Below, piece by piece: positions 8,794-33,543 of a stretch of 51,134 nt of DNA. The stretch spans positions 1 to 51,134 of the IMG/VR virus record IMGVR_UViG_3300042691_019551. The stretch is one strand, 5' to 3'. Under the pieces are notes generated by a model. It was not told where the DNA came from. It was given only the letters and a program-made list of their open reading frames with translations, and made no database searches. Each line of letters starts with the position of its first letter. Position 1 is the stretch's first letter. This DNA is from a virus. Position numbers and translations under genes: made by a program.

Positions 8794-9234
8794 GTGGCTC
8801 TAGCAGCAAACACAGTAACACCGAGACCACCGCTAAACCTATTCGAGGTTGAACGTCTTCAACTTCAGGGTAATACGTGGTTTCAGGTAGTTGAAGTACC
8901 TAGTTATTATATACCTAAGAACGGACCTATTTTAGCAAAGACTGTCAATACAGCTGCTATTATGACTGGGCTTACAATTACAAATATTCATAACCAGACT
9001 ATCCGTGCTTCAGCTCGTATTAGAGGTGGGGATGGTATAAATTACCTAGTCGTAAGCGCCGCTCCTATTCCACCCAACGATTTTCTTTCTATCAGCTTTG
9101 AACGTCAGGTCATGAAGACTGGTGAAGTGCTAGAAGTTTCTATACCAAGCAACTCAACCAGCGCTAATCACGCCCATGTACATTTTTCCTATATTATTAA
9201 TCAGAGAGAAGAGTTTCAGGATCTGACTCCATGA
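8794..9234 (+). CDS. small beta-rich virion protein, cassette 1
   Basis: A 146-residue protein starting at GTG 8794. A strong AGGAGG (8782-8787) overlaps the end of the beta-helix gene, so the two are translationally coupled. The sequence alternates hydrophobic and polar residues and has no signal peptide. It shares with the protein at 22630 its size, beta character and a PPND motif followed by a hydrophobic strand ([14 protein letters not shown] here, VPPNDTAFIPLQGR there), and both sit between a beta-helix gene and a long collagen-like fibre gene. It is probably a connector or adaptor of that fibre, an inference from order and weak similarity. It overlaps the next gene by 4 bases (ATGA). 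Confidence 0.6.
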
Positions 9235-12200
9235 GCTTAAAGTATAATTCCGACTCATTACTACTCTTAGCAGAAGGTGTACCGGTCGACCGTAACGACT
9301 TTGATGCCACCCTGTTTAAGGCAGCGATGCTGTATGATATTAATGATGGACGAATTTATTATTCTGACGGTGTAACGTGGGTTTGGCTCAATGAGTTTGC
9401 AAACAACTCTAATTTTGCTAACGTTGCTTCGTTTGCGCTATCAGCTAACAACGCTCTAAACGCGGCCAATGCTGAATTTGCGCTCGTATCAAACACCGCA
9501 TTTACCGCTCTTTTCTCATATACAGCTAATACGTCTAATTTTGCTAACGTATCAGCTTTAGCTGATTTTGCTAATGTTTCAAACGTTTCTTTCTATTCTA
9601 ATCTTGCTAATTTTGCCCAAGAAGCTAATACCGCTAACCTAGCTCTGTTTGCTGATTTTGCGTTTGTCGCTAACCTGGCTAATATTGCTATCTACGGTGA
9701 AACAGCTAACGTTGCAAACTTTGCTAACCTAGCTACTTACGCTGAGTTCGCTTTCGCCGCTAATAACGCTAATACAGCTGAACTCGCATTCAATGCTATT
9801 CAATCTGAGTCTGCTGCAGTTGCTGACTTTGCAAACTTTGCTAATAACGCAGGCTTTGCTAATAACGCTAATAATGCTATTACATCTAACAATGCTCTGA
9901 ACCTTAACGGTAAACCAGAAGATCAGCTCAACGTTAACTCTGCTACATTCGCAAATAACTCAAACTATCTTGAACAGCGCAACTGGGCTAACCCAGGCTC
10001 TATTGGTAACGAAACAGCTAATGCTGGTGTATTTACTGACGTCACAGTACAGGGTAACCTTACTGTTCTAGGTACGCGTACATTTGTTAATACCTCAATT
10101 CTTGATGTAAGTAATTCATTTATTGTACTTAACACTGGACAAGCCACACCGATCAATGATATTGGCTTTGTATTCCAGCGCTATGCCACCCCTAATACAA
10201 TCAACTATAATATTGGTCTAGCATGGGATGAGCAATCCCAAGTATTCACTCTTGGCGCTACACCTAATACTTCGCCTCAGAGCAATATTACATTCTCTGA
10301 TTCATGGCTATCGGTAACTAAAGACGGTGTAGCTACTGTTACAGGTCTTAATGTACAATCGGCTAACGTTTCCTATGTACTTGATATTAAGGGCCTGAGT
10401 GCAAATGGTTCACTCGGCGCTAACGGTCAAGTACTTGTCTCAAATGGATCTATTGCCTACTGGGCGGATATAGTTGGTTATACCGGCTCTCAAGGGGCTC
10501 AAGGTCCTCAGGGTACCCCTGGGGTACAAGGACCTCAGGGTGCACAAGGTATTCAGGGATCACGTGGCTATGATGGTTCGCGTGGTTATGATGGCTCACG
10601 CGGTGAGACGGGTTATGACGGTTCACGTGGCGAAAGAGGCTATGATGGATCAGCCGGTCCGCAAGGCCCGCAAGGTGCTTTAGGTTACACCGGTTCGCAA
10701 GGCCAGGCTGGATATGATGGTTCAACAGGTTATACAGGCTCTATCGGATATACAGGTTCTGTTGGTCCAGAAGGACCACAGGGTCCTCAAGGGTATACTG
10801 GCTCACGCGGATATGATGGATCGCGTGGTTATACCGGTTCACGCGGTGCTGTAGGCTATGAAGGTTCTCTGGGCTATACCGGCTCGATTGGCTATACAGG
10901 CTCGGCTGGTTACACAGGATCTGCAGGCGGTCTCGGTTATACAGGCTCTATCGGCTATACAGGTAGCGCCGGTTATGACGGTTCGCGCGGTAATACAGGC
11001 TATGATGGGTCGTCTGGTACTCAGGGTGGTCTCGGTTATACTGGTTCGACTGGTCCAGTTGGTGCACAAGGTCTCGCAGGTGCTCAAGGACCTCAAGGAC
11101 GCCAGGGCGTTCAGGGCGCAACAGGATTTACAGGTAGTGCCGGTGCACAGGGTCTGGCAGGTACATCCATTACACTACAAGGTGTAGTTGCTAACACTTC
11201 AGTGCTGCCAGGTAGTGCAACAGCTGGTGACGCTTACGTGGTGCAGACTGCGCCAGCTGGTCCAGGTAGAATTTATGTCTATTCTGGACTGCAATGGCTT
11301 GACGGTGGCCAGTTTGTTGGCTACACTGGCTCACAAGGACTTCAGGGAGCACAGGGTGTACAAGGTGCGCAGGGTGTTCAGGGTGCCGTTGGCGCTCAAG
11401 GACCTCAAGGCCCTCAAGGTGCCCAGGGCGCGCAGGGAGCGCAAGGTGTTCAAGGCGCAGTGGGTGCACCAGGCGCCCAAGGTGTACAAGGCGCATCAGG
11501 GGGCCCTGGTTCTCAAGGTGTGCAGGGTGCTATTGGACCGCAAGGTCCGCAAGGCGTTCAGGGCGCTGTTGGCGCACAAGGCGTCCAAGGCGCTGTCGGT
11601 GCGCAAGGTGCGCAGGGTCGTCAGGGTGCCCCTGGGTCGCAGGGCGCTGTTGGCGCACAAGGACCTCAAGGAGCTCAAGGTATACAAGGCGCGCCTGGTG
11701 GTACAGGTTCCCAGGGTGTACAAGGACCACAAGGACCACAGGGCGTACAAGGCGCTGTGGGTGCTCAAGGTGTACAAGGTGTTGCAGGGTCACAAGGATC
11801 CCCAGGTGCACAAGGACCACAAGGACCGCAAGGCATTCAAGGCGCTGTAGGCGCGCAGGGTGTTCAGGGCGCGACAGGCACCTCAATTAACCTTAAAGGG
11901 GTTGTAGCTAATACTGGAAGTTTACCGCCAAGTGGTAATATTGCTGGTGATGCTTATGTTGTGCAACAAGATGGCTTTATCTATATTTGGAGCGCTACAT
12001 CTTGGGAGTCTGGCGGACAGTTCGTCGGTCCACAAGGCCCACAAGGTCGCCAAGGAGCTCAAGGCGCTGTAGGTGCGCAGGGTCCTCAAGGTGTTCAAGG
12101 ACCAACCGGTGCAGGTGCACCAGGGGCTCAGGGTGCACCAGGCCCTCAAGGACCGCAAGGAGCTCAAGGTGTTCAGGGTGCTGTCGGTACCGGCGCGCCA

Positions 12201-13178
12201 GGATCCCAAGGCCCGCAAGGCGCACCAGGCGCTCAGGGTGTACAAGGCGCTACCGGTGCTGGAGCTCCAGGGCCCCAGGGTCCAAATGGTGGACCGGGCC
12301 CTCAGGGTGTTCAAGGGCCTCCAGGACCTCCGGGACCACAGGGTCTAGTCGGTGCACAAGGCGCACAGGGTCCATTAGGACCTCCAGGACCTCCGGGACC
12401 ACAGGGCGCTATCGGTGCTCAAGGTGTACAAGGTGCTCTTGGCCCGCAAGGCGGACCAGGCCCTCAAGGCGCTATCGGTGCTCAAGGACCTCAGGGCTTC
12501 CAAGGCGTTCAGGGTACAACAGGCGCTCAGGGCCCAGTTGGCGCGCCAGGTGCACAAGGCGTTCAAGGCGCATCAGGCGCGCAGGGCGCGATTGGTGCAC
12601 AAGGTCCAACAGGCGCACCAGGAGCCCAAGGCGTTCAGGGTGCGGTCGGTACCGGATCGCCAGGTCCGCAGGGCACAGCAGGTGGCCCTGGCCCTCAAGG
12701 TGCTGGTGGTCCTCCAGGGCCGCAGGGACCACAGGGACCACAAGGTCAGGCGGGTACTATTTCGAGCGGTGCAACTACCTATATCGCTTACTATACCGGT
12801 ACTACAACGGTTTCTGCAGCTTCCGGCTCAGCAACTATTTACGCTGGTGGAAACGTTCAAGCTGCCGACTTCGTTGTCGCATCCGACGAAAGACTCAAAA
12901 ACGTTGTCGGTAAGATTGATAATGCTCTTGATATTGTTAATAAGCTCGAAGGTATTAAATATACTTGGAATGAACTAGGTCAAAAGGACTTTGGTTACTC
13001 TGGTGATAAAGTTGAGCTTGGTATTCTCGCTCAGCAACTAGAAGCTTATATACCTGAGCTCATTCTACCGAGCGCTGTAGGTGACTATAAGACAGTTGCT
13101 TACCATAGACTGGTAGCGGTGCTTATTGAGGCAATTAAGGAACTGACAGCGAGAGTTGAAGCGCTAGAGGGCGAGTAA
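9231..13178 (+). CDS. collagen-like tail fibre with S74 C-terminal chaperone (1315 aa)
   Basis: Modules in order: a short N-terminal part containing WVWLNEF; an Ala/Asn/Phe-rich repeat zone at residues about 60-240 (units like [10 protein letters not shown]); a [14 protein letters not shown] module near residue 280; the GQVLVSNG...YW motif; three collagen-like Gly-X-Y tracts (about 416-645, 697-883 and 933-1175) separated by two copies of a GDAYVVQ module; and a C-terminal peptidase S74 domain. In the last, ASDERLK carries the Ser-Lys pair five residues apart (S1218, K1223) that self-cleaves in endosialidase-type chaperones. Such domains trimerise the fibre and are then removed. The protein is probably a long trimeric fibre. 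Start ATG 9231 overlaps the upstream stop. Confidence 0.85.
10476..12756 (+). repeat. collagen-like Gly-X-Y coding repeats in the 1315-aa fibre
   Basis: Three tracts (10476-11166, 11319-11880, 12027-12756) encode uninterrupted Gly-X-Y triplets. The first is rich in GYTGS and GYDGSRG units, the second in GAQGVQG, the third in GPPGPPGPQ. No lysine occurs inside the tracts. Gly, Ala and Gln codons are varied, so the DNA repeat is less exact than the protein repeat. Confidence 0.9.
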
Positions 13179-13960
13179 TGGCGACAACTATATCTAACCC
13201 CGCTACTTTTAGCTCTGTACGAAATGCATTTAATACGGAAGGCTATGGTACTTCTACGAGCTTCTTTGCCTACAGGCAAGGTGGCGGTATCGTACCGGCA
13301 ACATCTGCATTCAATCAGATAGGAGCTGGTACTGCAGGCGATCCGTTGCAGTTGAGTCAATTTAGTAATTTTACAGTACCGGCAAGACTTCAAACTATTA
13401 CGGCTCACACTGTTAATACATCACGCGATGCTGTAGGGGCGTACGTATATAATTCATCTCAGGCTACTTCTGAAATTTACGTATCGACAGATGGTAAGAT
13501 TTACGGTAGAGGTTCAACTCAATGGACACAATCTTTTGTATCAGCTTCTGGTTTTATTTTAATTGATAATTCCGACTATTGGGCAGATCTACCACCACCA
13601 AATAACCCAGGTACAGATCCAGGTCCTGTCATATTACAGTCATGGTTGTTAGGTACAGGTGCATCAGATTATTCGTGTCGCGCTACAATATTAGCGGGAT
13701 CTACATCCCCTGACGGGCTTAAAAAGTTTCGCTACGGTACGTTCGGGTCATGGTTAGCTATAACTGAGAATAGAAGTTGGGCAATTTCTGTAAATAGCTT
13801 TATGGCATTTCAGGAAAGCCCACCGGATGTACAGAGTATGGAATTATACTTTACTTTAGAATTTGCTAAAAGCAATGATCTCAATACAATATTAGGTTCA
13901 GCAACAATGACTCTACTAGCAGCTGCCAGCTCGACAGACGATCAGGCACCTCCTATATAA
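13178..13960 (+). CDS. virion protein, probable fibre-associated
   Basis: A 260-residue protein starting at an ATG that overlaps the upstream TAA (TAATG), with GAGGGCGAG as ribosome site. The N-terminus (FSSVRNAFNTEGYG, then a Gly/Thr linker, then DPLQLSQFSNF) has the layout of a small phage fibre-protein N-terminus also present at 43249 (FNDIQTEFGG ... IAISNFYS). The middle contains a Pro/Asn/Gly linker (LPPPNNPGTDPGP), followed by a beta-rich C-terminal domain. No enzyme motif is visible. Position directly after a long fibre suggests a tip or accessory virion protein. I do not recognise a named family. Confidence 0.6.
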   Translation: MATTISNPATFSSVRNAFNTEGYGTSTSFFAYRQGGGIVPATSAFNQIGAGTAGDPLQLSQFSNFTVPARLQTITAHTVNTSRDAVGAYVYNSSQATSEIYVSTDGKIYGRGSTQWTQSFVSASGFILIDNSDYWADLPPPNNPGTDPGPVILQSWLLGTGASDYSCRATILAGSTSPDGLKKFRYGTFGSWLAITENRSWAISVNSFMAFQESPPDVQSMELYFTLEFAKSNDLNTILGSATMTLLAAASSTDDQAPPI

Positions 13961-13976
13961 TGAAAGGTAATATATA

Positions 13977-14492
13977 ATGCAAACTAAACCCCTCTGGGAA
14001 GAAACCCGCGATTTACATCATGCATGTGAGCAACATGCTGTTGGTGGTGCCATGGCTACAGGTAAGCCACCAGCGATCTGGTATGCAGCCTGGCTTATAG
14101 CTCTAGAACAGATTCATTCTATTATTGATCCGCATATGCCAGATCTTCTGAATAGAACAAATAGACTTATTGAAGATATTAATACTATGCAATATGAGCT
14201 TCCGCTTTTGGAAGCAGCGAAAGTATATACTCTATCGCTTACAGACGAAAAGAAAATAGCCGGGGCAGCATATGTCCTAACCGGTGCGCACCTCATGGGC
14301 GGTGAAATTATGAGACGACGCTTAGAAGGTTTTCCTACTAAGCATCTAGAGTGGGATGATCGTAAAGAAGCTATCGCAATTCTTCAGACATATCGTACAC
14401 GCGATGATATTACCGAAGAAGCACGTGACTGTTTTAAAGCTCTACTCTCCATTATGGACGAGATTCAGAGACTCTATCCTATCAGTACTTGA
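13977..14492 (+). CDS. heme-oxygenase-like protein
   Basis: A 171-residue all-helical protein. The start LWEETRDLHHACEQH matches the proximal-helix motif of heme oxygenases, in which a histidine binds heme iron (H14 or H15 here). GAAYVLTGAHLMGGEIMRRR at 96-115 corresponds to the Gly-rich distal helix over the heme (GDLSGGQ type). Length fits the short bacterial and phage members. If active it would open heme to biliverdin, CO and Fe(II) in the host cytoplasm. It sits among fibre genes with its own ribosome site (AAAGG), unlike a virion part. Related helical folds (TenA/CADD type) are alternatives; the proximal and distal motifs favour heme oxygenase. No partner bilin reductase is in the window. 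Confidence 0.6.
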   Translation: MQTKPLWEETRDLHHACEQHAVGGAMATGKPPAIWYAAWLIALEQIHSIIDPHMPDLLNRTNRLIEDINTMQYELPLLEAAKVYTLSLTDEKKIAGAAYVLTGAHLMGGEIMRRRLEGFPTKHLEWDDRKEAIAILQTYRTRDDITEEARDCFKALLSIMDEIQRLYPIST

Positions 14493-14536
14493 CGGCCGCA
14501 ATACGATTATAATATACTTCCCCTGATAGTGCAACT

Positions 14537-14544
14537 TATAAATA
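14537..14544 (+). promoter_or_regulatory. late promoter TATAAATA
   Basis: Exact T4-type late element in the 85-base gap after the heme-oxygenase-like gene, 41 bases before ATG 14578. A ribosome site (AGAGAG) follows in the leader. Confidence 0.75.
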
Positions 14545-14577
14545 CTTTGAAATAGAATTTTTTTCAGAGAGTACCGT

Positions 14578-14907
14578 ATGGCTATCAAGAGTAATATCGT
14601 AATCGATCAAGGAACTGACTACGAAGTCACTATTAACGTCAAGGACGCTAATACAACTCCTATCGATCTAAACGGCTTCACAGGCCAAGCGCAGATTCGT
14701 AAGTATTTTACTTCTACAAAAAAGTATGATTTCTCTGTAACTATCGCTGCTAATACCGGCGAAGTAACATTAGCTATGTCCGCTGCCAATACAGCAAAGA
14801 TCTCAGCGGGTAGATATCTGTACGATTGCGTACTTACATCTAACACAAATGTTATGTCGAGAGTTGTTGAAGGTATTGTAACCATTAATCCACGCGTTAC
14901 AAGATAA
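14578..14907 (+). CDS. Ig-like baseplate protein (BppU N-terminal-like)
   Basis: A 109-residue beta-sandwich protein. DQGTDYEVTINVKDANTTPI, then LNGFTGQAQIRK, GEVTLAMSAANTAKISAGRY and a final RVVEGIVTINP match the pattern of small Ig-like phage domains at the N-terminus of baseplate upper proteins (BppU) and as stand-alone virion proteins in T4-like marine phages. Likely role: an adaptor that docks fibres on the baseplate or decorates the tail. It is the first gene after a late promoter and overlaps the next fibre gene (TAATG), suggesting that the two products work together. Confidence 0.65.
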   Translation: MAIKSNIVIDQGTDYEVTINVKDANTTPIDLNGFTGQAQIRKYFTSTKKYDFSVTIAANTGEVTLAMSAANTAKISAGRYLYDCVLTSNTNVMSRVVEGIVTINPRVTR

Positions 14908-16223
14908 TGTCCGACATCAAAAAGATCGTATTAACACCTAAGACAACCTTTACCGCCACCGTACAGAAGATTGGCGGGCGTGTTACTACGACTGACCCGA
15001 TTACAGTTAAGAATCAGGTTAATGAGATTCGCTCGCTGGATGATATTCCCGGTGTTAATACATCTCAGCGTGTAGATGGCGCTACCATCGTCTATAACGC
15101 TAATACAAACGAATATGAAGTACGCTCTACGTCCGGCAACGTAGTATCGATATCGATACAAACACTTATAGCAAATAGCTCACCGGGCCTAAACGGGCAG
15201 GTACTACATACAAACGGCTCCACAATTTACTGGAGTCCAGTACTTACATCTAACAACGCTACCTTTGCCTACGGTAAGCGTGAATCAGACCTCTCAGTTA
15301 ACTTCGCGCAGTTCTCAGGTAATGCCAACTTCGCATTCACATCGAATCTTGCTACGAGAGCTTTAACAGCCAACGTAGCCGACTTTGCTTTTGGTAAGCG
15401 TGAATCTGATCTATCGGTTAACTTCTCGCAGTTCTCTGGCAACGCTAACTTTGCGTTTACCTCGAATCTTGCTACGTATGCAATATCTGCTAATACAGCT
15501 GATTTCGCATTCGGCAAACGCGAATCAGACCTATCGGTAAACTTCGCGCAGTTCTCTGGCAACGCTAACTTTTCGTTTACTTCGAATAATGCTAGCTTCC
15601 TCGAAGGTCTTCCTGCTAGTTATTTCAGAAACGCCTCAAACCTTATAACAGGTCAACTTGACCCAGCTCGTCTAGCTAATTCCGGTGTCGTTTCAGGTAC
15701 ATACGGTAACTCTACAGCATACCCGGTAGTTACTGTAGATCAGTATGGTAGATTAACTACTGTAACTACGTCGCCTGTTTCCGGTATAAGTGATTTTGTA
15801 TATACATCAGGTAACAATACATTTGGTATCGTTACGGGTACATCCACATTTTATGCAACAATAGGCACCGTTAGCGACTTTGTGGTCACAGGTAATCTTA
15901 TTGTACAGGGTACAACAACTACTGTCAATACGCAGAACCTAGATGTTAAAGACGCTGTTATTAGATTAAATCAAAATCAAATAACACCGTTTAACGATAT
16001 CGGTATATTAATGCAGCGCTATAGCGTTGCTAACTCATCTAACTACAATATCGGGTTTGCTTGGAAAGAAGCCAATACAAAAATCGTCTTCGGTAAGACA
16101 CCAGAAGACGGCTCAGATAGCGACATCTCATTCTCTCAAGAATGGATGACGATATCTCAGACCGGTGATGTAGCTGTTTCTGGTAATCTTATCTTCAACG
16201 TTATTGACGGAGGTACCTACTAA
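14907..16223 (+). CDS. tail fibre protein with three 40-residue repeats
   Basis: A 438-residue fibre. After an N-terminal region comes the motif GQVLHTNGSTIYW, then three consecutive 40-residue repeats each beginning FA(Y/F)GKRESDLSVNF and containing QFSGNANF, ending in NASFLEGLPASYFRNAS. The C-terminal part carries GNLIVQGTTTTVNT followed by DIGILMQRY, the same module as in the 1315-aa and 2100-aa fibres. The Ala/Asn-rich zone resembles trimeric fibre shafts. No S74 domain is present. The gene ends by running 23 bases into the convergent minus-strand reading frame. Confidence 0.75.
   Translation: MSDIKKIVLTPKTTFTATVQKIGGRVTTTDPITVKNQVNEIRSLDDIPGVNTSQRVDGATIVYNANTNEYEVRSTSGNVVSISIQTLIANSSPGLNGQVLHTNGSTIYWSPVLTSNNATFAYGKRESDLSVNFAQFSGNANFAFTSNLATRALTANVADFAFGKRESDLSVNFSQFSGNANFAFTSNLATYAISANTADFAFGKRESDLSVNFAQFSGNANFSFTSNNASFLEGLPASYFRNASNLITGQLDPARLANSGVVSGTYGNSTAYPVVTVDQYGRLTTVTTSPVSGISDFVYTSGNNTFGIVTGTSTFYATIGTVSDFVVTGNLIVQGTTTTVNTQNLDVKDAVIRLNQNQITPFNDIGILMQRYSVANSSNYNIGFAWKEANTKIVFGKTPEDGSDSDISFSQEWMTISQTGDVAVSGNLIFNVIDGGTY
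15264..15623 (+). repeat. three in-frame tandem repeats of 120 bp
   Basis: Units begin at 15264, 15384 and 15504, each starting with the codons for FAYGKRESD or FAFGKRESD. Units one and two are alike over their full 40 codons; unit three diverges in its last ten. Synonymous differences show that the copies are not fresh. Confidence 0.85.
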
Positions 16224-16920
16224 ACTCATCTACCACATCGTAGTTGAGCGTAGAAGGGGAATCCCATATAGTTGATTTACGTAGCCAGCCAATTGCTGGT
16301 GTTGGTACCATTAGCGATAGCGGTACATCTGATTCAGTATCACCTGGATCATTTACTCTCATAAAATAGAAATTATCAATAGCACGCATTGCACCTTTCT
16401 CGTCTAGCTCTGCACAGAGTCTACGAGCTGTCTCAGGTGTTATCATATACGCATGCGCGCCGGAATGACGTTTTCTTGGTATTACCAAGCTAGGCCTTCC
16501 AGCTGCGACGTGGTTATACTTTGCCGGGTCTGGTAATTTATATCCTAGTGCGATGATATTACCGTCCCAGTTAACAGGCTCATTAGCTTTAATACTATGA
16601 AGCATTATAGAATCATGCTCTAGAATAACAACAGGATCCTGAGTATTCATCCCGGCTATCTTACGCCATAGAATAAAATGCGCTGCAGAAGCACAAGCGG
16701 CGCCTATATCCATCTCACCGAATTTTATTCCAGTAGCTTCCGATAATGTCTGAATATTGTATTCATTCTTATTGAAACCAAACCATGTATTAGGTTTTAG
16801 CCCTACTTTACGGCATGATTCTTCGGCAATCTCAGCGTATTCTTTTGAAAGAGAGTCGTTAGGTGTTCTAATTACAAATGCTTGCTGAGGCCCGTTGCTA
16901 CCCTTCTCGATTTTTAAAGT
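16201..16920 (-). CDS. GT25 glycosyltransferase domain lacking its own start, -1 frame of upstream gene
   Basis: This frame is open from 16944 down to TAA at 16203 and encodes a GT25 (LPS/collagen galactosyltransferase) domain: AFVIRTPNDSLSKEY near its start, then FGEMDIGAACASAAHFILW, the GEIGC...SH..LW motif, then VVILEHDSIM in place of the usual LEDD, and later HSGAHAYMITPETARRL. The first ATG (16713) falls inside the GEIGC-like motif and would remove some 69 residues, including the first strand. No ATG, GTG or TTG occurs between the upstream stop and that ATG. The domain is therefore probably made as a C-terminal extension of the upstream protein by a -1 shift on the A9 run, giving about 1571 residues. 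A homopolymer error in the assembly is the alternative. Coordinates mark the -1 frame after the A run. Confidence 0.7.
   Translation of the reverse strand, partial: TLKIEKGSNGPQQAFVIRTPNDSLSKEYAEIAEESCRKVGLKPNTWFGFNKNEYNIQTLSEATGIKFGEMDIGAACASAAHFILWRKIAGMNTQDPVVILEHDSIMLHSIKANEPVNWDGNIIALGYKLPDPAKYNHVAAGRPSLVIPRKRHSGAHAYMITPETARRLCAELDEKGAMRAIDNFYFMRVNDPGDTESDVPLSLMVPTPAIGWLRKSTIWDSPSTLNYDVVDEFSRYLRQ
16225..16248 (+). other. imperfect stem-loop at convergent gene ends
   Basis: CTCATCTAC (16225-16233) pairs with GTAGTTGAG (16240-16248) with one mismatch and a 6-base loop, two bases after the stop of the plus-strand fibre gene. There is no T run on either side, so it is not a standard intrinsic terminator. 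It may protect or mark the 3' end, or be chance, since it also codes for the end of the GT25 domain. Confidence 0.25.
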
Positions 16921-19900
16921 TTTTTTTTGAAATGGTAGTCGCCATCAAATTCCACGCGATTGATATTTGCCACAAGTTCAAAGCCCAGAGCATCCATAAA
17001 CTCAAGTACTTGATCAACATTCGGAGCTCCTTCGTTATATACCTTATGCTGAGCTTCTAAAATAACATCGGTGCAATGTTCGATGCACATCTTAGCACCC
17101 TTAAGCACGTCTATTTCAGCGCCTTGTACATCGATCTTAATAAGATCTGGTAGCGGGAAGTTATTCAGCTTAACAATCGTATCTAGAGTATAACCGGTCT
17201 TAGTAACCTTATGCTCTTCCCAACCCGGATTGATTTCCTTGTAATAGGAATTACCGCCTGGATTTTCTAGCCAGTGATAGAAGTCAAGCTGTCTACCATC
17301 TCTATCTGTTAGAAGGCCGATATGATACGGATGACCGGATTCCATAAGAATACGTTCTACTCCCGGCTCTGCATCAAAGAGAACAAACTTAGCATCTGGC
17401 CAAGCTGCTTTAGCGTGGCGCTCCCAATGTAAAACGCATGCGCCGATATCATATACTATCCTTGGCTTTAGATCAGAGATAGAATGTAGATATTCTACCT
17501 GCTCTTTAGGAAGACGGTCCTCGTCGCGAATATATTCAATAACAGACTTGGGCTTCGCCTCATCTACTTTGAAAGTGAACGAGCCAACATGATCGCAAAG
17601 GATTGTAGTATCAGCCCAAACCTTAAACCCAGCTTCGCGAGCTTTCTGACAGAAGTAAACATCTTCTGAAAATGTATGAGCATGATTGATAGCCGACTTA
17701 TAAACAAAATGCGGGTATTCCATGCCGCGCAACACTTCACCCTTGATTAGTACGCAACCGAAACCACAAGCAGCGATTTCCATTAGACCAATACGCTTCT
17801 TAATATTCTCCCACGGAATATTAGCGACACCACCATTGCCGATATCTTCATACAGTTCTAGTGTATGGCTACCCGGAATACGCTGAATGTAAAGTCCGGA
17901 GATAACATCTACATCCCAGCCAATCATCTTGAGCAGCGCATCGTTAGGTAGAACGATATCACTATCTACGCAGAATAGATAATCGTGATGCTTGCCCCAT
18001 TCAGCGATTAGATTGCGAATCTGATCGATTTGATATCCATAGAAGTATTGAAACTCAGTTCTATATCCCTTTGGTACTTTCAGATCAAAGATAGACTTGA
18101 ACGTAGCCGCTTCGATATTCTTGTTAGTAGGAATAGCAATAAGAATAGTCTTCTCACGTGGCATTTCAACTACAGGCTGTTCTTCTACTACCTCAGCCGG
18201 CTTATTCCAGATATCACGCTTAATATTTTCGTAATGCTCAGTCTCTCTATTCTGCAATCTAGACATAGCCTCTGCATCCTTAATGTAGAGATCTACACAA
18301 GTCTGAGCATAAGGTGTTTCATGGAATAGATTAACGATACAGTAGTTTGTACGCCCTTCTGCAAGATGCTTATCGAAGATGAAATAATCTCCGTAATACA
18401 TCTTGATCTCTTCAGGAATATGCGTCCAGGCATTCTTATTAACAAACATCAGACAGCCATAGCCGAACTGATGCATTCCATCTTGCCATGGAATAATCTG
18501 ATAGTTACCGTCTGTGATAGGAATCTGATTATACTGAGCAATACCCGGAACAATACCGCAGACGCCAGTATTAGGATTTTCTAGTACGCTTCTTAGCCCC
18601 TCGAATACTCTGAAGTCAAACCTCATGTCATCGTTAAGAATACAGACATAATCGTACTTGGCATTCTCTACACCCCAGTTCCAAGCCGGGTTGACGTAGA
18701 TGTTAGTACCAAATGTCTGGTAACGAAGCTTAGGGCTGAAAGGAAGCTTGAGCGGCGTCTTAGTCGGATCGTTATCGATCAGAATAACTTCGCCTACATC
18801 TGGGCAGTTTAAAAGCTCATTCAGATAGTTAAAGAACGGCTCATACTTCCACATTGTTGGTACGACTACCGTATAAAGCTTCTTACCGCCATTAATAATA
18901 GCGTTAGCCGTTCTATTTTGCTCTTCGCCGTTTACTTTATAATCATTGATAGGATTCATATCATTGTACACATAGTTAATATCCGTCACACATACGACCT
19001 TTTCAGGGTCAGCTTTTTCAATGAGGTAATAGAATAGAGCGGTGTCACCGCCTGCCTTTGGCCATTGACCATTTATCTTGAGATCATCCGCGGTTAGATC
19101 CTTAAGGAGCTTGGCGTGGAATGTACGCATATGGGTATATGGCATATGCCAGTTAAACTTATATTGTCTATAAGATTTAGCTTGCTTAACTTCAGGTGGA
19201 TATGGCTGTGCAACAAGCGGAATATTATCCACGAGCGACCAGCAAGAGCCGTAAGTAAACTCAGCGCCATCATGATAGAGATTGTTATACTTATGGAAGA
19301 TATTCGGATCATTTGCCAACCAATCATCACCATCCAGGATCATATAGAAGTCTTCGTCACCTTGACACTCATCTATTATCTTATAATGATTGGCTACAGC
19401 ACCAATATTTTCTTTATTCTTAATCAATACAAACTTATGTCGAAGATCTTCAGGTAATGATTCAATAGTTTGTTTAATAACACTAATAGTATTATCAGTA
19501 GAGCAGTCATCTACGATATATATTGTGTAGTGCTTATAGTCTTGACTAGCTACAGAACGAATACACTTCTCAATATAGTTTTCAGCGTTGAATACAGCTG
19601 TTATAATACCGATACTCTTCTGAATATTCTTTATAGGCTGTACTTCTTCTTCATTAATAAAGCGGCGTCCAAACGTCTTACGTACTTTATAATTGATCTC
19701 TTGCGCTTTACGATACTCATCAACGGGCATATATTCGCCCAGCTTATGGAAGAAATGCTGCTTCCATTGCATAGCAACAGAGTCCCAGCCGCAGATATCC
19801 TTTACAGCATTACAAGCATACATCTTTTGCTGATGCAAATACTTGTCGTGATAAGCCCGAATAGTCGTCTGTACGAAACGCTCTACCTGTTCATCTTGAT

Positions 19901-20915
19901 TAATATAAGGAAATAGCCCGTTGGGTACTACAGGGTAAGGTATCTTATAACATGCAGCATCAAAAGCTGTTTCTTCCATAGCGCCGAAGTAGCAACTAAT
20001 AACGGGTGTATTGTAGCATAGCGACTCTAGAGTAGAAATGCCAAAGGTTTCTGGGAAGTCGCAGGGGTATATCATGTAGGACGCATTGCAGAGAATATCG
20101 GCAATCTCTGACTGCTTAATGATACCCGTGAAGTTAATGTCCGGGTTGTTCTCAACCATCTGACGCCATTCAATCTCTTGCTGATCAGGCTCGTGATCGG
20201 AGCGCATTCTATAATAGCCTCCGATAATAGTCAGTTTAGCATCGGGAATAGACTGTCTAATTCTTGGCCAGATACGATTAACAAGCGGCCTCATACCCTT
20301 GGTTACGGATGAGTTATAAACGAAGTGATTGGGATCTTTCTTGGTAATATCAACCCAGTCATGGTATTTGGTCATACCATTACGAGTGACGAACATATAC
20401 TTCTTCATCACTTCGAACATGCGCCTCTTACCGTGATCGCAGTTCGTTACATAGTCGAGATGGAAATCAGAGAGGACGAATACTTCGTTAATGTACCCAT
20501 CCAGAAGAAACGTATCGATAAGATCATCACCGTCACAGAACGTATCGTGCATCCATAGCACTTTATGACGTGATCTTAGTTGTAGATTGGTGAAGTCAGG
20601 CATGTATGAGAACGTCTTGAAACGTTCTTTCATATGAGCTGGTGCAAACGCTGCTACCGAGCGAGATCCGATTAGAACATCGTAGCTATCTGTTGTGCTT
20701 TCGATCTCTTGGAGAGGTCTGTACCAAACGTTATCGTAGTGGCCTGGTTGTGCGTCGTCGTGGACACAGTCGTTGAAGACTGTAACGTCGAACCCGAGCT
20801 TAGCAAGCTCGCGTGAACAGAGTATAACTGCCGATTCTGAGCCACCTAAACCTCTTTTCGTTAAAGTTGTGCCATCGTAACATAAGCCGAACGTATCTAC
20901 GAACGCAATTTTCAT
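16914..20915 (-). CDS. multi-domain glycosyltransferase/FkbM methyltransferase (1333 aa)
   Basis: Five enzyme-like modules in one chain. Residues 1-395: GT4-type, with GLGGSESAV near the start and the donor-site motif DFPETFGISTLESL (286-299). Residues 433-655: GT2 with a nucleotide-sugar strand (IYIVDDCSTDNT) and DXD-type DGDDW (528-532). Residues 678-870: second GT2-like domain with LIDNDPTKT and LNDDM. Residues 921-1115: third GT-A-like domain with CVDSDIVLP (982-990). Residues 1150-1320: FkbM-family SAM methyltransferase with VYDIGAC and KIDVQGAEIDVLKGA. I chose ATG 20915 (MKIAFVDTFG); ATG 20921 is equally possible, and the longer open frame to 21011 runs through the divergent promoter region. 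The protein probably builds and methylates a glycan in the cytoplasm; the acceptor is unknown. A GT25 domain follows in the -1 frame. Confidence 0.8.
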   Translation of the reverse strand: MKIAFVDTFGLCYDGTTLTKRGLGGSESAVILCSRELAKLGFDVTVFNDCVHDDAQPGHYDNVWYRPLQEIESTTDSYDVLIGSRSVAAFAPAHMKERFKTFSYMPDFTNLQLRSRHKVLWMHDTFCDGDDLIDTFLLDGYINEVFVLSDFHLDYVTNCDHGKRRMFEVMKKYMFVTRNGMTKYHDWVDITKKDPNHFVYNSSVTKGMRPLVNRIWPRIRQSIPDAKLTIIGGYYRMRSDHEPDQQEIEWRQMVENNPDINFTGIIKQSEIADILCNASYMIYPCDFPETFGISTLESLCYNTPVISCYFGAMEETAFDAACYKIPYPVVPNGLFPYINQDEQVERFVQTTIRAYHDKYLHQQKMYACNAVKDICGWDSVAMQWKQHFFHKLGEYMPVDEYRKAQEINYKVRKTFGRRFINEEEVQPIKNIQKSIGIITAVFNAENYIEKCIRSVASQDYKHYTIYIVDDCSTDNTISVIKQTIESLPEDLRHKFVLIKNKENIGAVANHYKIIDECQGDEDFYMILDGDDWLANDPNIFHKYNNLYHDGAEFTYGSCWSLVDNIPLVAQPYPPEVKQAKSYRQYKFNWHMPYTHMRTFHAKLLKDLTADDLKINGQWPKAGGDTALFYYLIEKADPEKVVCVTDINYVYNDMNPINDYKVNGEEQNRTANAIINGGKKLYTVVVPTMWKYEPFFNYLNELLNCPDVGEVILIDNDPTKTPLKLPFSPKLRYQTFGTNIYVNPAWNWGVENAKYDYVCILNDDMRFDFRVFEGLRSVLENPNTGVCGIVPGIAQYNQIPITDGNYQIIPWQDGMHQFGYGCLMFVNKNAWTHIPEEIKMYYGDYFIFDKHLAEGRTNYCIVNLFHETPYAQTCVDLYIKDAEAMSRLQNRETEHYENIKRDIWNKPAEVVEEQPVVEMPREKTILIAIPTNKNIEAATFKSIFDLKVPKGYRTEFQYFYGYQIDQIRNLIAEWGKHHDYLFCVDSDIVLPNDALLKMIGWDVDVISGLYIQRIPGSHTLELYEDIGNGGVANIPWENIKKRIGLMEIAACGFGCVLIKGEVLRGMEYPHFVYKSAINHAHTFSEDVYFCQKAREAGFKVWADTTILCDHVGSFTFKVDEAKPKSVIEYIRDEDRLPKEQVEYLHSISDLKPRIVYDIGACVLHWERHAKAAWPDAKFVLFDAEPGVERILMESGHPYHIGLLTDRDGRQLDFYHWLENPGGNSYYKEINPGWEEHKVTKTGYTLDTIVKLNNFPLPDLIKIDVQGAEIDVLKGAKMCIEHCTDVILEAQHKVYNEGAPNVDQVLEFMDALGFELVANINRVEFDGDYHFKKKL
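16920..16928 (-). other. A9 homopolymer, candidate frameshift/slippage site
   Basis: On the minus strand the sequence reads TTC AAA AAA AAA CTT TAA: nine A immediately before the stop of the 1333-residue protein. Slipping back one base gives AAA AAA AAA ACT TTA AAA ATC and continues into the GT25 frame. Runs of this length are slippery for ribosomes and RNA polymerase, and are also common sites of sequencing indels. Confidence 0.6.
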
Positions 20916-23096: not shown

Positions 23097-26000
23097 ATGG
23101 GCTTTAGTTTTCTTTCAGGTGCAATACAGTCATCCAATACAGGATTCGCTGTACCTGGTTACGTATTACCATCTGAAGTAGAGCGTCAGCTCGGCGTTCC
23201 GAATGCTAATGGCCAGATTCTTGTATCTAATACTGATGGGTCCAGATATTGGACGTCTAATCTTGAAATCGATTCTATAACTATTACTACATTTATCGCT
23301 AATGGTTCTGTTGGTTTAGCTGGGCAGGCTCTTGTTAGCGATGGTAATAATGTATATTGGGCAGATAATCCCGGCTATACGGGTTCGATCGGGCCGCAGG
23401 GACCGACAGGTTATGTCGGGTCTCAAGGACTACAAGGCGTGCAAGGCGCGCAGGGTGTACAAGGCGCTCAAGGCGCTATTGGCGCTCAAGGTGCTCAAGG
23501 TGTCCAGGGTGCATTAGGTTATACTGGTTCCCAAGGCTTGCAGGGTGCTCAAGGAGCCCAAGGCGCTCAGGGACCCATTGGCTATACAGGTTCTCAAGGT
23601 CTTCAGGGAGCTCAAGGTACCCAAGGTGCGCAAGGCGCGGCTGGTTATACAGGCTCTCAAGGTTTGCAAGGCAGACAGGGAGCGCAAGGCGTTCAAGGCG
23701 CTCAAGGTGTACAAGGTGCAGTCGGTGCTCAGGGCGTACAGGGCGCGTTGGGCTATACTGGCTCTCAAGGCCTGCAGGGTGCCCAAGGTGTTCAAGGCGC
23801 TGTTGGTGCACAAGGCGTACAAGGTGCACAGGGAGCCCAAGGTGTACAAGGTGCACCTGGATATACTGGCTCGCAGGGCCTACAAGGCGCTCAAGGTACC
23901 CAAGGGGTTCAGGGTGCTACAGGTTACGATGGCTCTAGAGGCCTTCAAGGTGCGCAAGGCGTTCAGGGTGCAGTAGGTGCTCAGGGTCCGCAAGGTGTTC
24001 AAGGTGCTATAGGCGCTCAAGGTGTACAGGGAGCTGCTGGTGCACAAGGCGTTCAAGGCGCTATTGGCTATACCGGGTCCCAGGGTCTTCAAGGTCAGCA
24101 AGGAGCTCTTGGTTACACTGGTTCACAAGGCCTTCAAGGCGCTCAAGGTGCACCGGGTTATACTGGTTCGCAAGGCCTGCAAGGTTCTATCGGATATACT
24201 GGCTCGCAGGGTCTACAAGGCGTACAGGGCGCTCAGGGCGTTCAAGGGGCACAAGGCGTTCAGGGTGCAGTTGGAGCTCAAGGCGTACAGGGCGCGCCTG
24301 GTTATACTGGCTCACTCGGATATGCGGGATCTCAAGGGCTACAGGGTGTACAAGGCGCTGTCGGCGCTCAAGGCATTCAGGGTGCTGTTGGCGCTCAAGG
24401 GGTACAGGGCGCTATTGGTTATACTGGTTCAATAGGTTATACCGGTTCGCAAGGGCTTCAAGGCGTTCAGGGTGCAGTTGGAGCTCAAGGCGCCCAGGGC
24501 GCTCAGGGCGTACAGGGCGCGTCTGGATATACAGGCTCTCAAGGACTACAAGGCGCGCAAGGCGTTCAAGGCGCTATTGGTTATACCGGGTCTCTTGGTT
24601 ACACTGGCTCGCAGGGCCTTCAAGGTACACAGGGTGTTCAGGGCGCTACAGGACCAGCTGGTACATCGGTTGTTATTCTAGGTTCTGTATCAACGTCTAC
24701 AAACCTTCCTGGGTATCCTAGCTCGTATACAGGTGATATCGGCGATGGATACATTACTACCGATACAGGTGATCTGTGGGTATGGGATGGTGATTCTTGG
24801 AATAACGCTGGCCGTATTCTAGGTTATACAGGGTCGGTAGGTCCTCAAGGCGCACAAGGCGTACAAGGTGCTATAGGCGCACAGGGTGTGCAAGGTGCAG
24901 CAGGAGCACAAGGAGCCCAAGGGGTACAAGGTCCTATTGGCTATACTGGCTCACAAGGGCTGCAAGGTCGTCAAGGGACACAGGGTGTTCAGGGAGCTAC
25001 AGGTTACGATGGTTCGCGTGGCTTACAAGGCGCGCAAGGGGTTGCTGGCGCTCAAGGCCCGATTGGTTACACAGGATCTCAAGGGCTTCAAGGAGTACAA
25101 GGGGCCCAAGGCGTACAGGGAGCTGTAGGTGCTCAAGGCGCAGTCGGAGCCCAGGGCGCGCAGGGTGTTCAAGGGCCTATTGGATATACTGGATCGCAGG
25201 GACTTCAAGGCGCTCAAGGCGCTCAAGGTGTTCAAGGTGCACAAGGTGTTCAAGGTGCCGCGGGTGCTCAAGGCCCACAGGGCGTACAAGGTGTGTCTGG
25301 CTACACCGGATCGGCTCTCATGGGAGCTATCAATTACACGCAAAACACAGCTCCTCAAGTAACTGTAGTAAATACTGCTACAAATACTGCTATTGCCATT
25401 ACTTCTATTACTACAAGTGGTTCCCCGGTACAAATTATTGCATCAGGTGACGCTAATCCATTGGCCAATGGTACATGGGGTAGATTGCAGATTTATAGAG
25501 GCGGTACACCGATCGGTGGCATTGTTCATTACGAATCATCCGCGGGCAATGAAAACGTACCATATGCTATCCAGTTTGTTGATACACCAGGTACAGGTAC
25601 ATTCAATTACTCACTAAGAGTACTTGATATGGCAGGTGGCAATACACAGTTTGGCGAATCAACTGGTCCAGTTATTACCGCTGTTGAGCTTCAGAACGTT
25701 AGAGGATATTCCGGCTCGTTAGGATATACCGGCTCTATTGGTTACACTGGCTCCCAAGGGCTACAAGGTGTACAAGGCGCTGTTGGTGCACAAGGTGTAC
25801 AAGGGGCAGCTGGTGTTCAAGGGCCAATCGGATACACTGGCTCACAAGGTCTACAGGGAGCCCAGGGTACCCAAGGTGTTCAAGGTCCTCTAGGCTATAC
25901 AGGCTCTCAAGGGCTACAGGGCGTTCAAGGCGCTGTTGGTGCACAAGGCGTACAAGGTGCTGTCGGTGCTCAAGGTACCCAGGGCGTTCAAGGTCCTATC

Positions 26001-29000
26001 GGCTATACAGGCTCCCAAGGTCTTCAGGGAGCTCAGGGTACACAAGGCGTACAAGGCGCCACTGGTTACGATGGCTCTAGAGGTCTTCAAGGCTTCCAAG
26101 GTGCAGCTGGTGCTCAAGGTCCCTTAGGTTATACAGGCTCTCAAGGTCTTCAAGGCGTACAGGGTGCGCAGGGTGTTCAAGGAGCCGCTGGCGCTCAGGG
26201 CGCCGTAGGTGCCCAGGGTGTTCAAGGTCCTATTGGTTATACTGGATCCCAGGGCCTACAAGGTGTACAAGGCGCAACTGGCGCGCAAGGCCCTATAGGT
26301 TATACCGGGTCACAAGGAGCTCAGGGTGCTCAAGGCATTCAAGGGATACAGGGCGCAACTGGTGCCCAAGGTCCTTTAGGTTATACAGGCTCTCAAGGTC
26401 TTCAAGGCGTTCAAGGCGCGCAGGGCGTACAAGGAGCTGCTGGCGCGCAAGGGGCCGCGGGTGCACAAGGTGTTCAAGGTTCTATCGGTTATACTGGGTC
26501 CCAGGGCCTTCAGGGCGTACAGGGTGCACAAGGCGTTCAAGGTCCGCTAGGATATACTGGTTCGCAGGGACTTCAAGGCGCTCAGGGTGTCTCTGGAACA
26601 CAAGGCGCTTCAGGTTATACTGGTTCCCAGGGGCTGCAAGGAGCTCAAGGTGTTCAGGGTGCAGCTGGCGCTCAAGGGCCTATTGGCTATACAGGATCTC
26701 AAGGACTTCAGGGACAACAAGGCGCTCTAGGATATACCGGATCGCAGGGACTTCAAGGAGCTCAAGGTCGCCAAGGCGTACAGGGCGCACCGGGTCCTGT
26801 TGCGGGATCTGATACACAGATTATCTTTAACGATGCCGGTAATGCAAACGGCTCACCTAATCTAACATTTAATAAAGCTACTAATACTCTAGCTGTTACA
26901 GGCCCCGTTACAATCTCTGGTAACCTAACAGTTACAGGTACGCAGACAATTGTTAACACAAATATTGTCTCTATCGGCGATTCTATTTTAACTCTAAATG
27001 GTGATCTTCCTTCTGGTTCAGCGCCGACTGAAAACGCTGGTCTAGATATTAATAGAGGATCATCAGCTAACGTACAATTCCTTTGGGATGAAACAAACGA
27101 CCGCTGGACCACAAATGGTCAGCCAATGATTGTTTCGAATCTAACTACAACTGGTTTTGCTAACGTTGCATCGACACTTAGCGTATATGGTAATACTGCA
27201 TTAAGAAGCACAACATCGTTTATAGCGCCTAACGGCAATACTATTACGATGACAATGCTTGATTCAGATGTACTGTCGTTCTCAGGTACATCTGGACAGC
27301 TATTCTCTATTGCCGATTCAATGACTGGAGTAATCTTCTCGGTCAATGATATCTCAGGTATACCTTCGATCGAAGTCTATGCTAACGGCCAAATTAATCT
27401 TGCGCCGTTCGGTGGTAATGTATACTTCGGTACTGCTACAGCTATTAATGCTAATGGCTCATTTGGCTCAGCTGGTCAGGTACTTGCATCTAGCGGCAAC
27501 GGTATATACTGGGCTACAAACCCGGGTTATACAGGTTCGCAAGGTCTTCAAGGGCGTCAAGGCGTTCAGGGTGCAACCGGATATGATGGTTCAAGAGGAC
27601 TTCAGGGAGCTCAAGGGGTACAAGGCGCAACAGGCGCACCTGGAGCTCAAGGCGTTCAGGGTCCTATCGGTTATACGGGCTCGCAAGGACTCCAAGGTGT
27701 TCAAGGAGCCGTAGGCGCTCAGGGCGTTCAAGGCGCTACAGGTGCTCCTGGTGCGCAGGGTGTACAAGGGGCGGTAGGTGCGCAAGGCGTCCAAGGTCCT
27801 ATCGGTTATACTGGCTCTCAAGGCTTGCAAGGTGTCCAAGGCGCTACTGGTGCTCCCGGCGCTCAAGGCGTACAAGGAGCTGTCGGTGCACAAGGCCCCA
27901 TCGGTTATACTGGCTCGCAAGGCCTTCAAGGCCGCCAAGGTGTTCAGGGTGCCACAGGCTACGATGGCTCTAGAGGCCTGCAAGGAGCTCAAGGTGTTCA
28001 GGGTGCTGTGGGTGCACCAGGGGCTCAAGGCGTTCAGGGTCCTATCGGTTATACGGGCTCGCAAGGACTCCAAGGTGTTCAGGGTGCTGTCGGCGCTCAA
28101 GGCGTTCAAGGCGCAACTGGCGCGCCTGGCGCGCAAGGTGTTCAAGGCCCTATTGGCTATACAGGTTCCCAGGGCCTACAAGGCGTTCAAGGTGCTGCTG
28201 GCGCGCAAGGTATACAGGGAGCCCAAGGCCCTCAAGGCGCACAGGGCGCAGTTGGTGCTCAAGGTGCACAGGGCGTCCAAGGTCCTATTGGTTATACCGG
28301 CTCCCAGGGACTACAAGGCGTCCAGGGTGCTGCGGGAGCTCAAGGCATACAGGGCGCTGTCGGCGCACCAGGCGCACAAGGTGTTCAAGGTGCAGTAGGT
28401 GCACCTGGTGCACAAGGCGTACAAGGTGCTACCGGTCCGCAAGGCGTACAGGGCGCAGTTGGTGCACAAGGCGCTCAAGGCGTACAAGGTGCACCGGGAC
28501 CTGTTGCCGGATCAACCACGCAAATCATCTTTAACGATGGCGGCTTTGCAAATGGATCACCTAACCTAACCTTTAATAAGGCTACAAATACACTGACAGT
28601 AGCTGGCCCAGCTGCAATTACAGGCGATCTAACAGTATCCGGTACGCAGACGATTGTTAATACTAATATCGTTTCTATTGGCGACGCTATTATTACACTG
28701 AACGGTGATCTACCACCGGCATCTGCACCAACAGAGAATGCCGGTATTGAAGTTAATCGTGGCTCGTCGGCTAATGTACAGTTCCTTTGGGATGAAACAA
28801 ACGATCGCTGGTCAACGAACAATCAGCCGTTTATTGCTGGTAATACTACAATTAGCGGCTTCGCTACTGTTTCATCTGCTCGTGGCGGCGTTGCAACACC
28901 AACAGCAGGGCAAAACAACTCTGCTCTATATGTTACTAACTCTGATACAGCATATGGTATTCTGTTTGGATCGGATCCCGCAACAGGTCAAGGCTTCATT

Positions 29001-31614: not shown

Positions 31615-33543
31615 GTGGCCAACGATAAAAGTTTCATAATCAAAAATGGCGTTATAGTAGGTTCAACTGCTGCAATCAGTGCGGCAGGTGCTTGGGTTGG
31701 CTCGCAGACAAACGTAAAAGGATTTCAAGGTAATCTAGGAGCTACCGGCACAGCTGGTGCACCTGGGCTTCAAGGCACTCAAGGAGCTTTAGGAGCTCAA
31801 GGAGCAGTCGGCGCTCAAGGAGTACAGGGCCCTGCTGGTATTTCTCCTCCAGGTGCACAAGGCGCAGCCGGAGCTCAAGGCGCGGCTGGTGCCCAAGGAG
31901 CACAAGGGGCTCAGGGAGCACAAGGCGCACAAGGAGCCCAAGGCGCGGCTGGCGCGCAAGGCGCTGTCGGCGCTCAAGGCGTTGCTGGCGTTACCGGTGC
32001 AACTGGTGCACCTGGTGTCGCAGGTGTTATTGGCGCTCAAGGCGCGCCAGGGCCACCAGGAGCTCAAGGCGCTGTTGGCGCACAGGGAGCTGCAGGCGCT
32101 ACCGGCGCCCCGGGCGCGCAAGGCGTACAAGGATCCCAAGGTGCGCAAGGTGCTCAGGGTACTCAAGGTGCTACCGGAGCCCCTGGTGCTCAAGGCGCTC
32201 AAGGGGTTCAAGGAGCAGTCGGCGCGCAAGGCGCTGATGGTCCAAGAGGTGTGCAGGGTGCACAGGGTGCGCAAGGGGCAGTCGGACGAAATGGCGCCCC
32301 AGGCGCACAAGGTGCCCAAGGCGCTGCAGGCGCTCAAGGACCTCAAGGACCTGCAGGTCCTCCGGGCCCAGAAGGTGTTGCAGGTGTTCAAGGTGCACAA
32401 GGCGCGCAAGGAGCGCAAGGGTTCCAAGGTGGTATATCAGGAGCTCGTGGTGTTCAAGGAGCACCAGGTGTACCAGGCTCAGCTGGCGTCCAAGGAGCTG
32501 CGGGTGTAGCAGGTGTTGCTGGTGCTCAAGGCCCGGCAGGCGTCGTTGGTACCACGGGTACAACCGGCGCAACAGGTGTAGCTGGCGCTCCGGGTGCTCA
32601 GGGCGCCCCGGGCGCTCAGGGAGCTTTAGGGCCGCAAGGAGCGGCAGGTGCGCAAGGTGCTACAGGAACTACAGGAGCCACCGGCGCGCAAGGTGCCCCT
32701 GGTGCTCAGGGAGCTGTAGGCGCTCAAGGTACTGCGCCAGTAGGAGCTCAAGGTCCAGCTGGAGCTACCGGAGCTCCAGGATCAACAGGGCCAGCTGGCG
32801 CCGCCGGAGCCCCGGGCGCTCAAGGAGCACAAGGTGCTCAAGGACCTCAAGGCCCAACCGGTGCGACTGGTGCACCTGGCGCCCAAGGCGCTCAGGGCGC
32901 AGCAGGTGCGCAAGGTACTGTAGGCGCACAAGGAACAGCTTCGGCTGTAGCTGGCGCTCCTGGTACCGCAGGACCCCCGGGTGCTCAAGGCCCTGCTTCT
33001 GCGGTTACAGGTCCACCCGGAACTGCAGGTCCTCCAGGTGCACCAGGTGCGCAAGGAGCCACCGGCCCAGCTGGTGCGCAAGGAACCGTTGGCTCTCAAG
33101 GAAGCAGCGGTTCACTTGGTACGCAAGCATCAGCCCTTGGTGTTAATACCGCAGCGGGGCCTACAGGTGATTTAAGAGCTACATCATCTATTACAGCATA
33201 TTTTTCTGATGTAAGACTTAAAGATAAAATAGAATATATCAAGGACGCAGGTGATAGGCTTTATGCTCTTAACGGGGTATTTTACCGTCAAAACAAACTA
33301 GCTGAGAGATATGGATATCACGACTATAAAACTCAGGTAGGTGTGATTGCTCAAGAAGTTCAAAAAATATTACCAGAAGTCGTTAAGCCAGCTCCATTTG
33401 ACGTTATTGGAAAAGATGAAAGTAAGTCAGGGCAATACTATCTAACAGTGCAATATGATAAGATCATTCCTTTGATAATAGAAACGATTAAAGAACAGCA
33501 GCATGAAATTGAAGAGCTGAAAGGATTACTAAATGGCGAATGA
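31615..33543 (+). CDS. collagen-like fibre with S74 domain, paralog 1 of 3
   Basis: A 642-residue protein, GTG start at 31615 behind GGGAAAG. It begins [16 protein letters not shown], a short attachment motif shared by all three paralogs. It then carries one collagen-like tract (about residues 36-490) of [12 protein letters not shown] and GPPG triplets. The C-terminus is a peptidase S74 chaperone: SDVRLKDKI (S531, K536), [20 protein letters not shown] and [12 protein letters not shown]. Self-cleavage before S531 would release the chaperone after the collagen trimer has formed. Likely a thin trimeric fibre. It overlaps the next gene by 11 bases. Confidence 0.85.
31720..33090 (+). repeat. collagen-like Gly-X-Y coding repeats, paralog 1
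   Basis: One long tract dominated by GAQGAQ and GAPGAQ triplets. Pro is frequent at the Y position (GAP, GPP) and there is no Lys. The aromatic GYTGS units of the longer fibres are absent here. Confidence 0.85.

What the first reader, a model, noticed from the sequence alone, without database searches (positions are those of the whole stretch)
16201..16945. GT25 domain with no start codon, joined to upstream enzyme across an A9 run in the -1 frame
Directly visible: the 1333-residue minus-strand protein ends AAA AAA AAA CTT TAA, and the -1 frame through the same bases runs on for about 239 codons as a complete-looking GT25 domain. No ATG, GTG or TTG lies between the stop and the first ATG, which cuts the GEIGC-like motif. 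A -1 slip on nine A gives a 1571-residue six-module enzyme. It is either a programmed shift or polymerase slippage that makes a short and a long form, or a single-base homopolymer error or a recent mutation.
Basis: partly seen in the sequence, partly recalled or inferred. Interest (0 to 1): 0.8.

Follow-up and report, generated by a model that had tools for sequence, protein, structure and literature searches.

The report
Frame break inside fused phage glycosyltransferase
A big sugar-adding enzyme of a freshwater T4-like phage has its last module knocked out of frame by one base in a run of nine A's, while every related phage we could read keeps it in frame; both pieces still look functional and such runs are known to be read sloppily, so two enzyme lengths are probably made, but no conserved switch was found.

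Summary
The minus-strand ORF (1333 aa from its ATG) ends AAA AAA AAA CTT TAA. The -1 frame continues for 239 codons as a complete GT25 glycosyltransferase, with no ATG/GTG/TTG before 16713. All comparable relatives in public viral contigs carry the same FkbM-to-GT25 junction (DYHFKKK...) in one continuous frame, with A runs of 3 to 10 there, so the out-of-frame state is peculiar to this lineage. A second contig (L002: 99.94% identical over 9.4 kb, 6 SNPs, no gaps) has the same A9, which argues against a random assembly error. The GT25 frame shows no second lesion, strong purifying selection (pN 0.18, pS 0.71 against the closest relative) and a confident GT-A fold (pLDDT 92). Either the break is recent or the domain is still expressed. 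No hairpin or Shine-Dalgarno stimulator was found and the slippery run is not conserved, so a programmed site is not supported. Published data (A9 giving about 40% frameshifting in one E. coli cassette) make leaky production of a long form likely. Best reading: a single-base change in a Lys-rich linker of an ancestrally fused gene, real in the population and probably partly rescued by slippage.

The parts
16914..20915 (-). Upstream ORF, 1333 aa from ATG: GT4-like module, GT2 module, GT-A-like module, further GT module, C-terminal FkbM methyltransferase module
   Evidence: Pfam Glycos_transf_2 1.5e-30 (two stretches), Methyltransf_21 1.9e-12, Glyco_trans_1_4 4.3e-11; phrog_1574, phrog_2170, phrog_8156
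16920..16928 (-). A9 run (AAA AAA AAA in the upstream frame) encoding the conserved KKK linker; site of the frame break
   Evidence: the same A9 in L002; relatives have A3-A10 here with the frame open
16914..16916 (-). TAA stop of the upstream frame, one codon after the run
16201..16920 (-). GT25 glycosyltransferase module in the -1 frame, 239 codons plus stop, no start codon at its head
   Evidence: (pLDDT 92.4, pTM 0.91)
16201..16713 (-). Longest ATG-started ORF inside the GT25 frame (170 aa); lacks predicted strands 13-18 and 42-47 and helices 23-38 and 56-63 of the domain, so not a plausible complete enzyme
9231..13178 (+). Collagen-like tail fibre gene near the enzyme gene (context)
23097..29399 (+). 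Collagen-like tail fibre gene, 2100 aa (context)

Best explanation
A fused multi-module phage glycosyltransferase gene (GT4-GT2-GT-GT-FkbM-GT25) has a single-base frame break in the run of A's that encodes the conserved Lys-Lys-Lys linker between FkbM and GT25. The break is present in the phage population (two contigs), is young or tolerated, and is not a conserved programmed frameshift. Because A9 is a good substrate for -1 ribosomal slipping and for insertion slippage by RNA polymerase, the phage most likely makes mainly a complete five-module short enzyme plus a minority of six-module long enzyme. Shown: anatomy, in-frame relatives, shared A9, intact and constrained GT25 frame. Inferred: the DNA state is real rather than systematic error, and slippage gives some long form. 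Not shown: any benefit of making two forms.
For: All junction-bearing relatives (L003, L004, L005, L006, L009, L014, L015, L016, L017, L021; also L027, L029, L050, L066 with DYHF variants) read FkbM into GT25 in one frame; BFVD holds an annotated FkbM phage protein with this GT25 at 69% identity. L002 shares A9 at 99.94% identity, 6 SNPs and 0 gaps, 5 of the SNPs in the same gene, so it is not the same assembly copied. No other contig of this population with another run length was found. The GT25 frame is constrained: pN 0.184 / pS 0.710 against L003, the same distance to outgroups as L003, motif residues such as LEHD, GAHAY and DNFYF intact, no second stop or indel, pLDDT 92. Published: a 9-A cassette gave 40% frameshifting and a 7-A cassette 10% in E. 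coli (PMC3711429); an A11 run rescues a prematurely stopped tssM by RNA polymerase slippage at 20-25% (PMC4256274); in many bacterial genomes 9 is the A/T run length at which selection against slippage becomes evident (PMC1088944).
Against: No reads, transcripts or peptides exist here. The two contigs could share a systematic platform error, since the sequencing technology is unknown and no paper naming the metagenome was found. Related contigs do carry private frame breaks (L003 a 14-bp extra copy, L014 a missing 2 bp), so contig quality is imperfect. The window GT25 departs from 90%-conserved columns slightly more often than its nearest relatives (6/62 against 3/60, mostly conservative), which could hint at early decay. 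One reporter study found E. coli RNA polymerase slips little on A runs (PMC6260861).
Confidence: 0.58

Rival explanations
1. Plain recent loss: the frame break truncates the protein and the GT25 module is no longer made in useful amounts; it looks intact only because the event is very young.
For: Only this lineage is out of frame; no stimulatory elements; other phages use GT25 as a separate or movable module (L007 has it between GT2 and the later modules), so it may be dispensable; slight excess of changes at conserved columns.
Against: A9 runs leak measurably in published assays; the two strains share the break and show no GT25 change between them, though that interval is short.
Confidence: 0.2
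2. Sequencing or assembly artefact: the true run has another length and the gene is an ordinary in-frame fusion.
For: The site is the longest homopolymer in the window, where undercalls concentrate; sister contigs L003 and L014 each carry a private frame break not seen in the other.
Against: A second contig with real SNPs relative to the window has exactly the same A9; no obvious frame break elsewhere among the other densely packed long ORFs of the window (by inspection).
Confidence: 0.15
3. Selected two-product site: programmed -1 shift or polymerase slippage kept by selection to make a fixed ratio of five- and six-module enzymes, or phase-variable run length switching GT25 on and off.
For: The break falls exactly at a module boundary, leaving two complete proteins; three AAA codons in a row although the gene prefers AAG (22 AAA, 66 AAG); conserved GT25 frame; precedent in Citrobacter tssM, where both forms are needed.
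Against: The run is A3 to A10 in relatives and in frame in all; downstream RNA folds worse than shuffles (z = +1.47); no Shine-Dalgarno-like element upstream of the run; the boundary position is explained by the conserved KKK linker.
Confidence: 0.07

Closest known systems
Citrobacter rodentium tssM1 (A11 run, transcriptional slippage; PMC4256274)
   Same: Premature stop soon after a poly-A run, downstream domain intact in another frame, relatives encode one long protein, no ribosomal stimulators.
   Different: A9 rather than A11; phage enzyme; no expression data here; benefit of two forms unknown.
Magnesium chelatase fs-gene cluster with poly-A runs (PMC3711429)
   Same: -1 joining of two parts across A7 to A11; fused single-frame homologues exist; the 9-A cassette gave 40% frameshifting in E. 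coli.
   Different: There the frame break recurs in 23 genes of six genera; here it is in a single population.
GT25 glycosyltransferases: mimivirus R655, human COLGALT1, bacterial beta-1,4-galactosyltransferase
   Same: Best solved-structure matches to the predicted fold (E 7e-8 to 7e-6); Pfam GT25.
   Different: Only about 14% identity and TM about 0.55-0.60; the usual EDD-like motif (own knowledge) is EHD in the 48 aligned phage members; donor and acceptor unknown; the collagen-like repeats of this phage have no Lys in their repeat positions.
FkbM-GT25 phage fusions (BFVD A0A6J5M7M7; L003-L006, L029)
   Same: Same modules, order and DYHFKKK-type junction (shown for the L loci; for A0A6J5M7M7 only the FkbM name and GT25 match are seen).
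   Different: Continuous frame.

Membership tests
Programmed -1 ribosomal frameshift gene (dnaX type) | Slippery A_AAA_AAR heptamer in the correct register before the stop | tested here: met
   AAA AAA AAA C contains A_AAA_AAA in register
Programmed -1 ribosomal frameshift gene (dnaX type) | Downstream stem-loop or pseudoknot, or upstream Shine-Dalgarno stimulator | tested here: not met
   MFE -7.4 against shuffle mean -11.2, z +1.47; no SD-like element in the 40 nt upstream; pseudoknots not modelled
Programmed -1 ribosomal frameshift gene (dnaX type) | Site conserved among homologues | tested here: not met
   Relatives in frame with variable runs A3-A10
Transcriptional slippage gene (tssM1 type) | A/T run of about 9 or more before the stop, with frame restored by one inserted base | tested here: met
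   A9; one extra A in the transcript joins the frames
Transcriptional slippage gene (tssM1 type) | mRNA with heterogeneous run length and both protein forms detected | not testable with these tools
   no RNA or protein data
GT25 glycosyltransferase family | Pfam PF01755 match and GT-A fold | tested here: met
   22.3 bits, just under the 24-bit cut-off for the window itself, but all 48 homologues match, best 1.1e-10; fold matches R655 and COLGALT1
GT25 glycosyltransferase family | Catalytic activity and metal-binding acidic motif | tested here: inconclusive
   Invariant E-H-D in place of the usual E-D-D (usual motif from own knowledge); activity not testable

The most novel reading that the evidence does not exclude
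The A9 linker is a selected slip site that sets the proportion of five- and six-module enzyme, so the phage decorates its collagen-like tail fibres with two glycan types from one gene.
Probability: 0.06. Interest if true: 0.7.

Novelty: new member of a known kind. Interest (0 to 1): 0.3.

Why it matters
It is a clean case of a homopolymer frame break in a fused phage enzyme with in-frame relatives on all sides, useful for testing how far unprogrammed slippage buffers indels. It also warns gene finders, which would call a truncated enzyme and a headless GT25 fragment. The side result, that GT25-containing fusions in phages often sit beside collagen-like fibre genes while stand-alone GT25 genes do not, suggests a testable role in fibre glycosylation.

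Tried and rejected
Internal start for GT25: no ATG/GTG/TTG before 16713; rare candidates (ATC 16911, ATT) have no Shine-Dalgarno, and the 16713 ATG removes half the nucleotide-binding fold. Programmed shift: no structure, no SD, no conservation. Statistical excess of the A9 run: not significant under a first-order Markov model. Hydroxylysine galactosylation of the fibres as in COLGALT1: rejected in its simple form because the Gly-X-Y tracts have no Lys. Same-species DNA in GenBank phages: none. Publication naming the metagenome of L002: none.

Full report
Observation. The minus-strand gene 20915..16914 encodes 1333 aa and ends DYHFKKKL* (AAA AAA AAA CTT TAA). In the -1 frame the sequence runs on as TLKIEKGSNGPQQAFVIRT... 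for 239 codons to a stop at 16201. No ATG, GTG or TTG lies in that frame between its opening at 16944 and the ATG at 16713.

Identity of the parts. The upstream protein contains GT4-like, GT2 (two stretches) and further GT modules and a C-terminal FkbM methyltransferase. The downstream frame is a GT25 domain. Pfam is just under its cut-off for this sequence, but all 48 aligned homologues match the family. AlphaFold gives a complete GT-A-like fold, pLDDT 92.4, whose first strand begins at residue 13 after the junction. The best solved matches are mimivirus R655, human COLGALT1 and a bacterial beta-1,4-galactosyltransferase. The ATG at 16713 would delete the first two strands and helices.

Relatives. 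Viral contigs give 152 GT25 relatives, of which 80 were kept. By my reading, about 60 of the 80 are separate genes with their own start, usually ATG, within about 18 codons of the domain, and 18 belong to multi-module fusions (counting L002 itself). In every fused relative other than L002 the frame into GT25 is continuous. The closest (L003/L014, L004-L006, 68-72% identity) share the DYHFKKK junction with A8 and A3 runs. More distant ones have A8 (L009), A10 (L015, in frame), A7 (L016, L017) and A5 (L021). Several distant fusions keep an internal ATG just before GT25 (MKPTKAY), apparently a relic of the stand-alone start; the window lineage does not. L007 carries GT25 between GT2 and the later modules, so the module moves.

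Real or artefact. Contig L002 matches window 20596..11172 with 6 substitutions and no gaps. Five of the six fall in this gene (four synonymous, one S/P) and none in GT25. It has the same A9. Exact scans for each flank of the run found only L002. A shared systematic error is possible but less likely. As a caution, L003 and L014 each have a private frame break elsewhere in the gene.

Selection. Against L003 the GT25 frame has pN 0.184 and pS 0.710; against outgroups the window is no more distant than L003 (for example pN 0.377 and 0.371 to L015). Departures from conserved columns are 6/62, against 3/60 for L003 and L004, mostly conservative. The GT25 frame was therefore constrained for most of the lineage; a recent break and continued leaky expression both fit.

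Mechanism. The register allows A_AAA_AAA slipping by ribosomes, and one extra A added by RNA polymerase also joins the frames. The RNA after the run is less structured than shuffles (z +1.47) and no Shine-Dalgarno-like element precedes it. A published cassette with 9 A's gave 40% frameshifting in E. coli (PMC3711429), and A11 rescues tssM1 (PMC4256274); E. coli RNA polymerase was found less prone on A than on T runs (PMC6260861). Thus some long product is likely, by inference only. Nothing indicates that the site is selected. Its position at the module boundary follows from the conserved KKK linker, although three AAA codons run against the AAG preference of the gene (22:66).

Context. The contig is a fragment of a T4-like myovirus: terminase closest to Sinorhizobium phage phiM12 at 58%, with sheath, baseplate and several collagen-like fibre genes. 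Freshwater origin is my inference from what I remember of the metagenome numbers of its closest relatives and was not checked. Loci with fused GT25 contain Gly-X-Y tracts in 9 of 18 cases, against 0 of about 60 stand-alone loci (Fisher p = 2.7e-7, not corrected for relatedness). This suggests, but does not show, that the enzyme acts on the fibres. Glycosyltransferases in tail-fibre regions of other T4-like phages have otherwise been ascribed to host LPS modification (PMC7029224).

Verdict. An ordinary kind of event, well documented: a lineage-specific homopolymer frame break in a fused phage enzyme, probably leaky. Not a conserved programmed frameshift.

Noticed in passing
window 9231-13178, 23097-29399, 31615-37379: Five collagen-like (Gly-X-Y) tail-fibre-type genes with about a thousand triplets in all, Gln-rich in Y and without Lys; GT25 fusion loci in other phages are also often next to Gly-X-Y genes (9 of 18) while stand-alone GT25 loci are not (0 of about 60).
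   Followed up: partly
L003 near 3010 and L014 near 2201: Private frame breaks in the same gene (14-bp extra copy; 2-bp difference) not shared by the sister contig; probably assembly errors or rare mutants.
   Followed up: partly
L015 (minus strand, near 4550-4570): A10 run in frame at the same linker; loss of one A in the transcript there would give an immediate TAA, the mirror image of the window case.
   Followed up: no
L007 3991-7983: GT25 module placed between GT2 and the later GT/FkbM modules in a 382-kb phage contig: module shuffling within the enzyme.
   Followed up: no
A3 alignment, residues 101-103 of GT25 (window about 16612-16620, minus strand): Invariant E-H-D in all 48 phage GT25 sequences instead of the usual E-D-D.
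   Followed up: no
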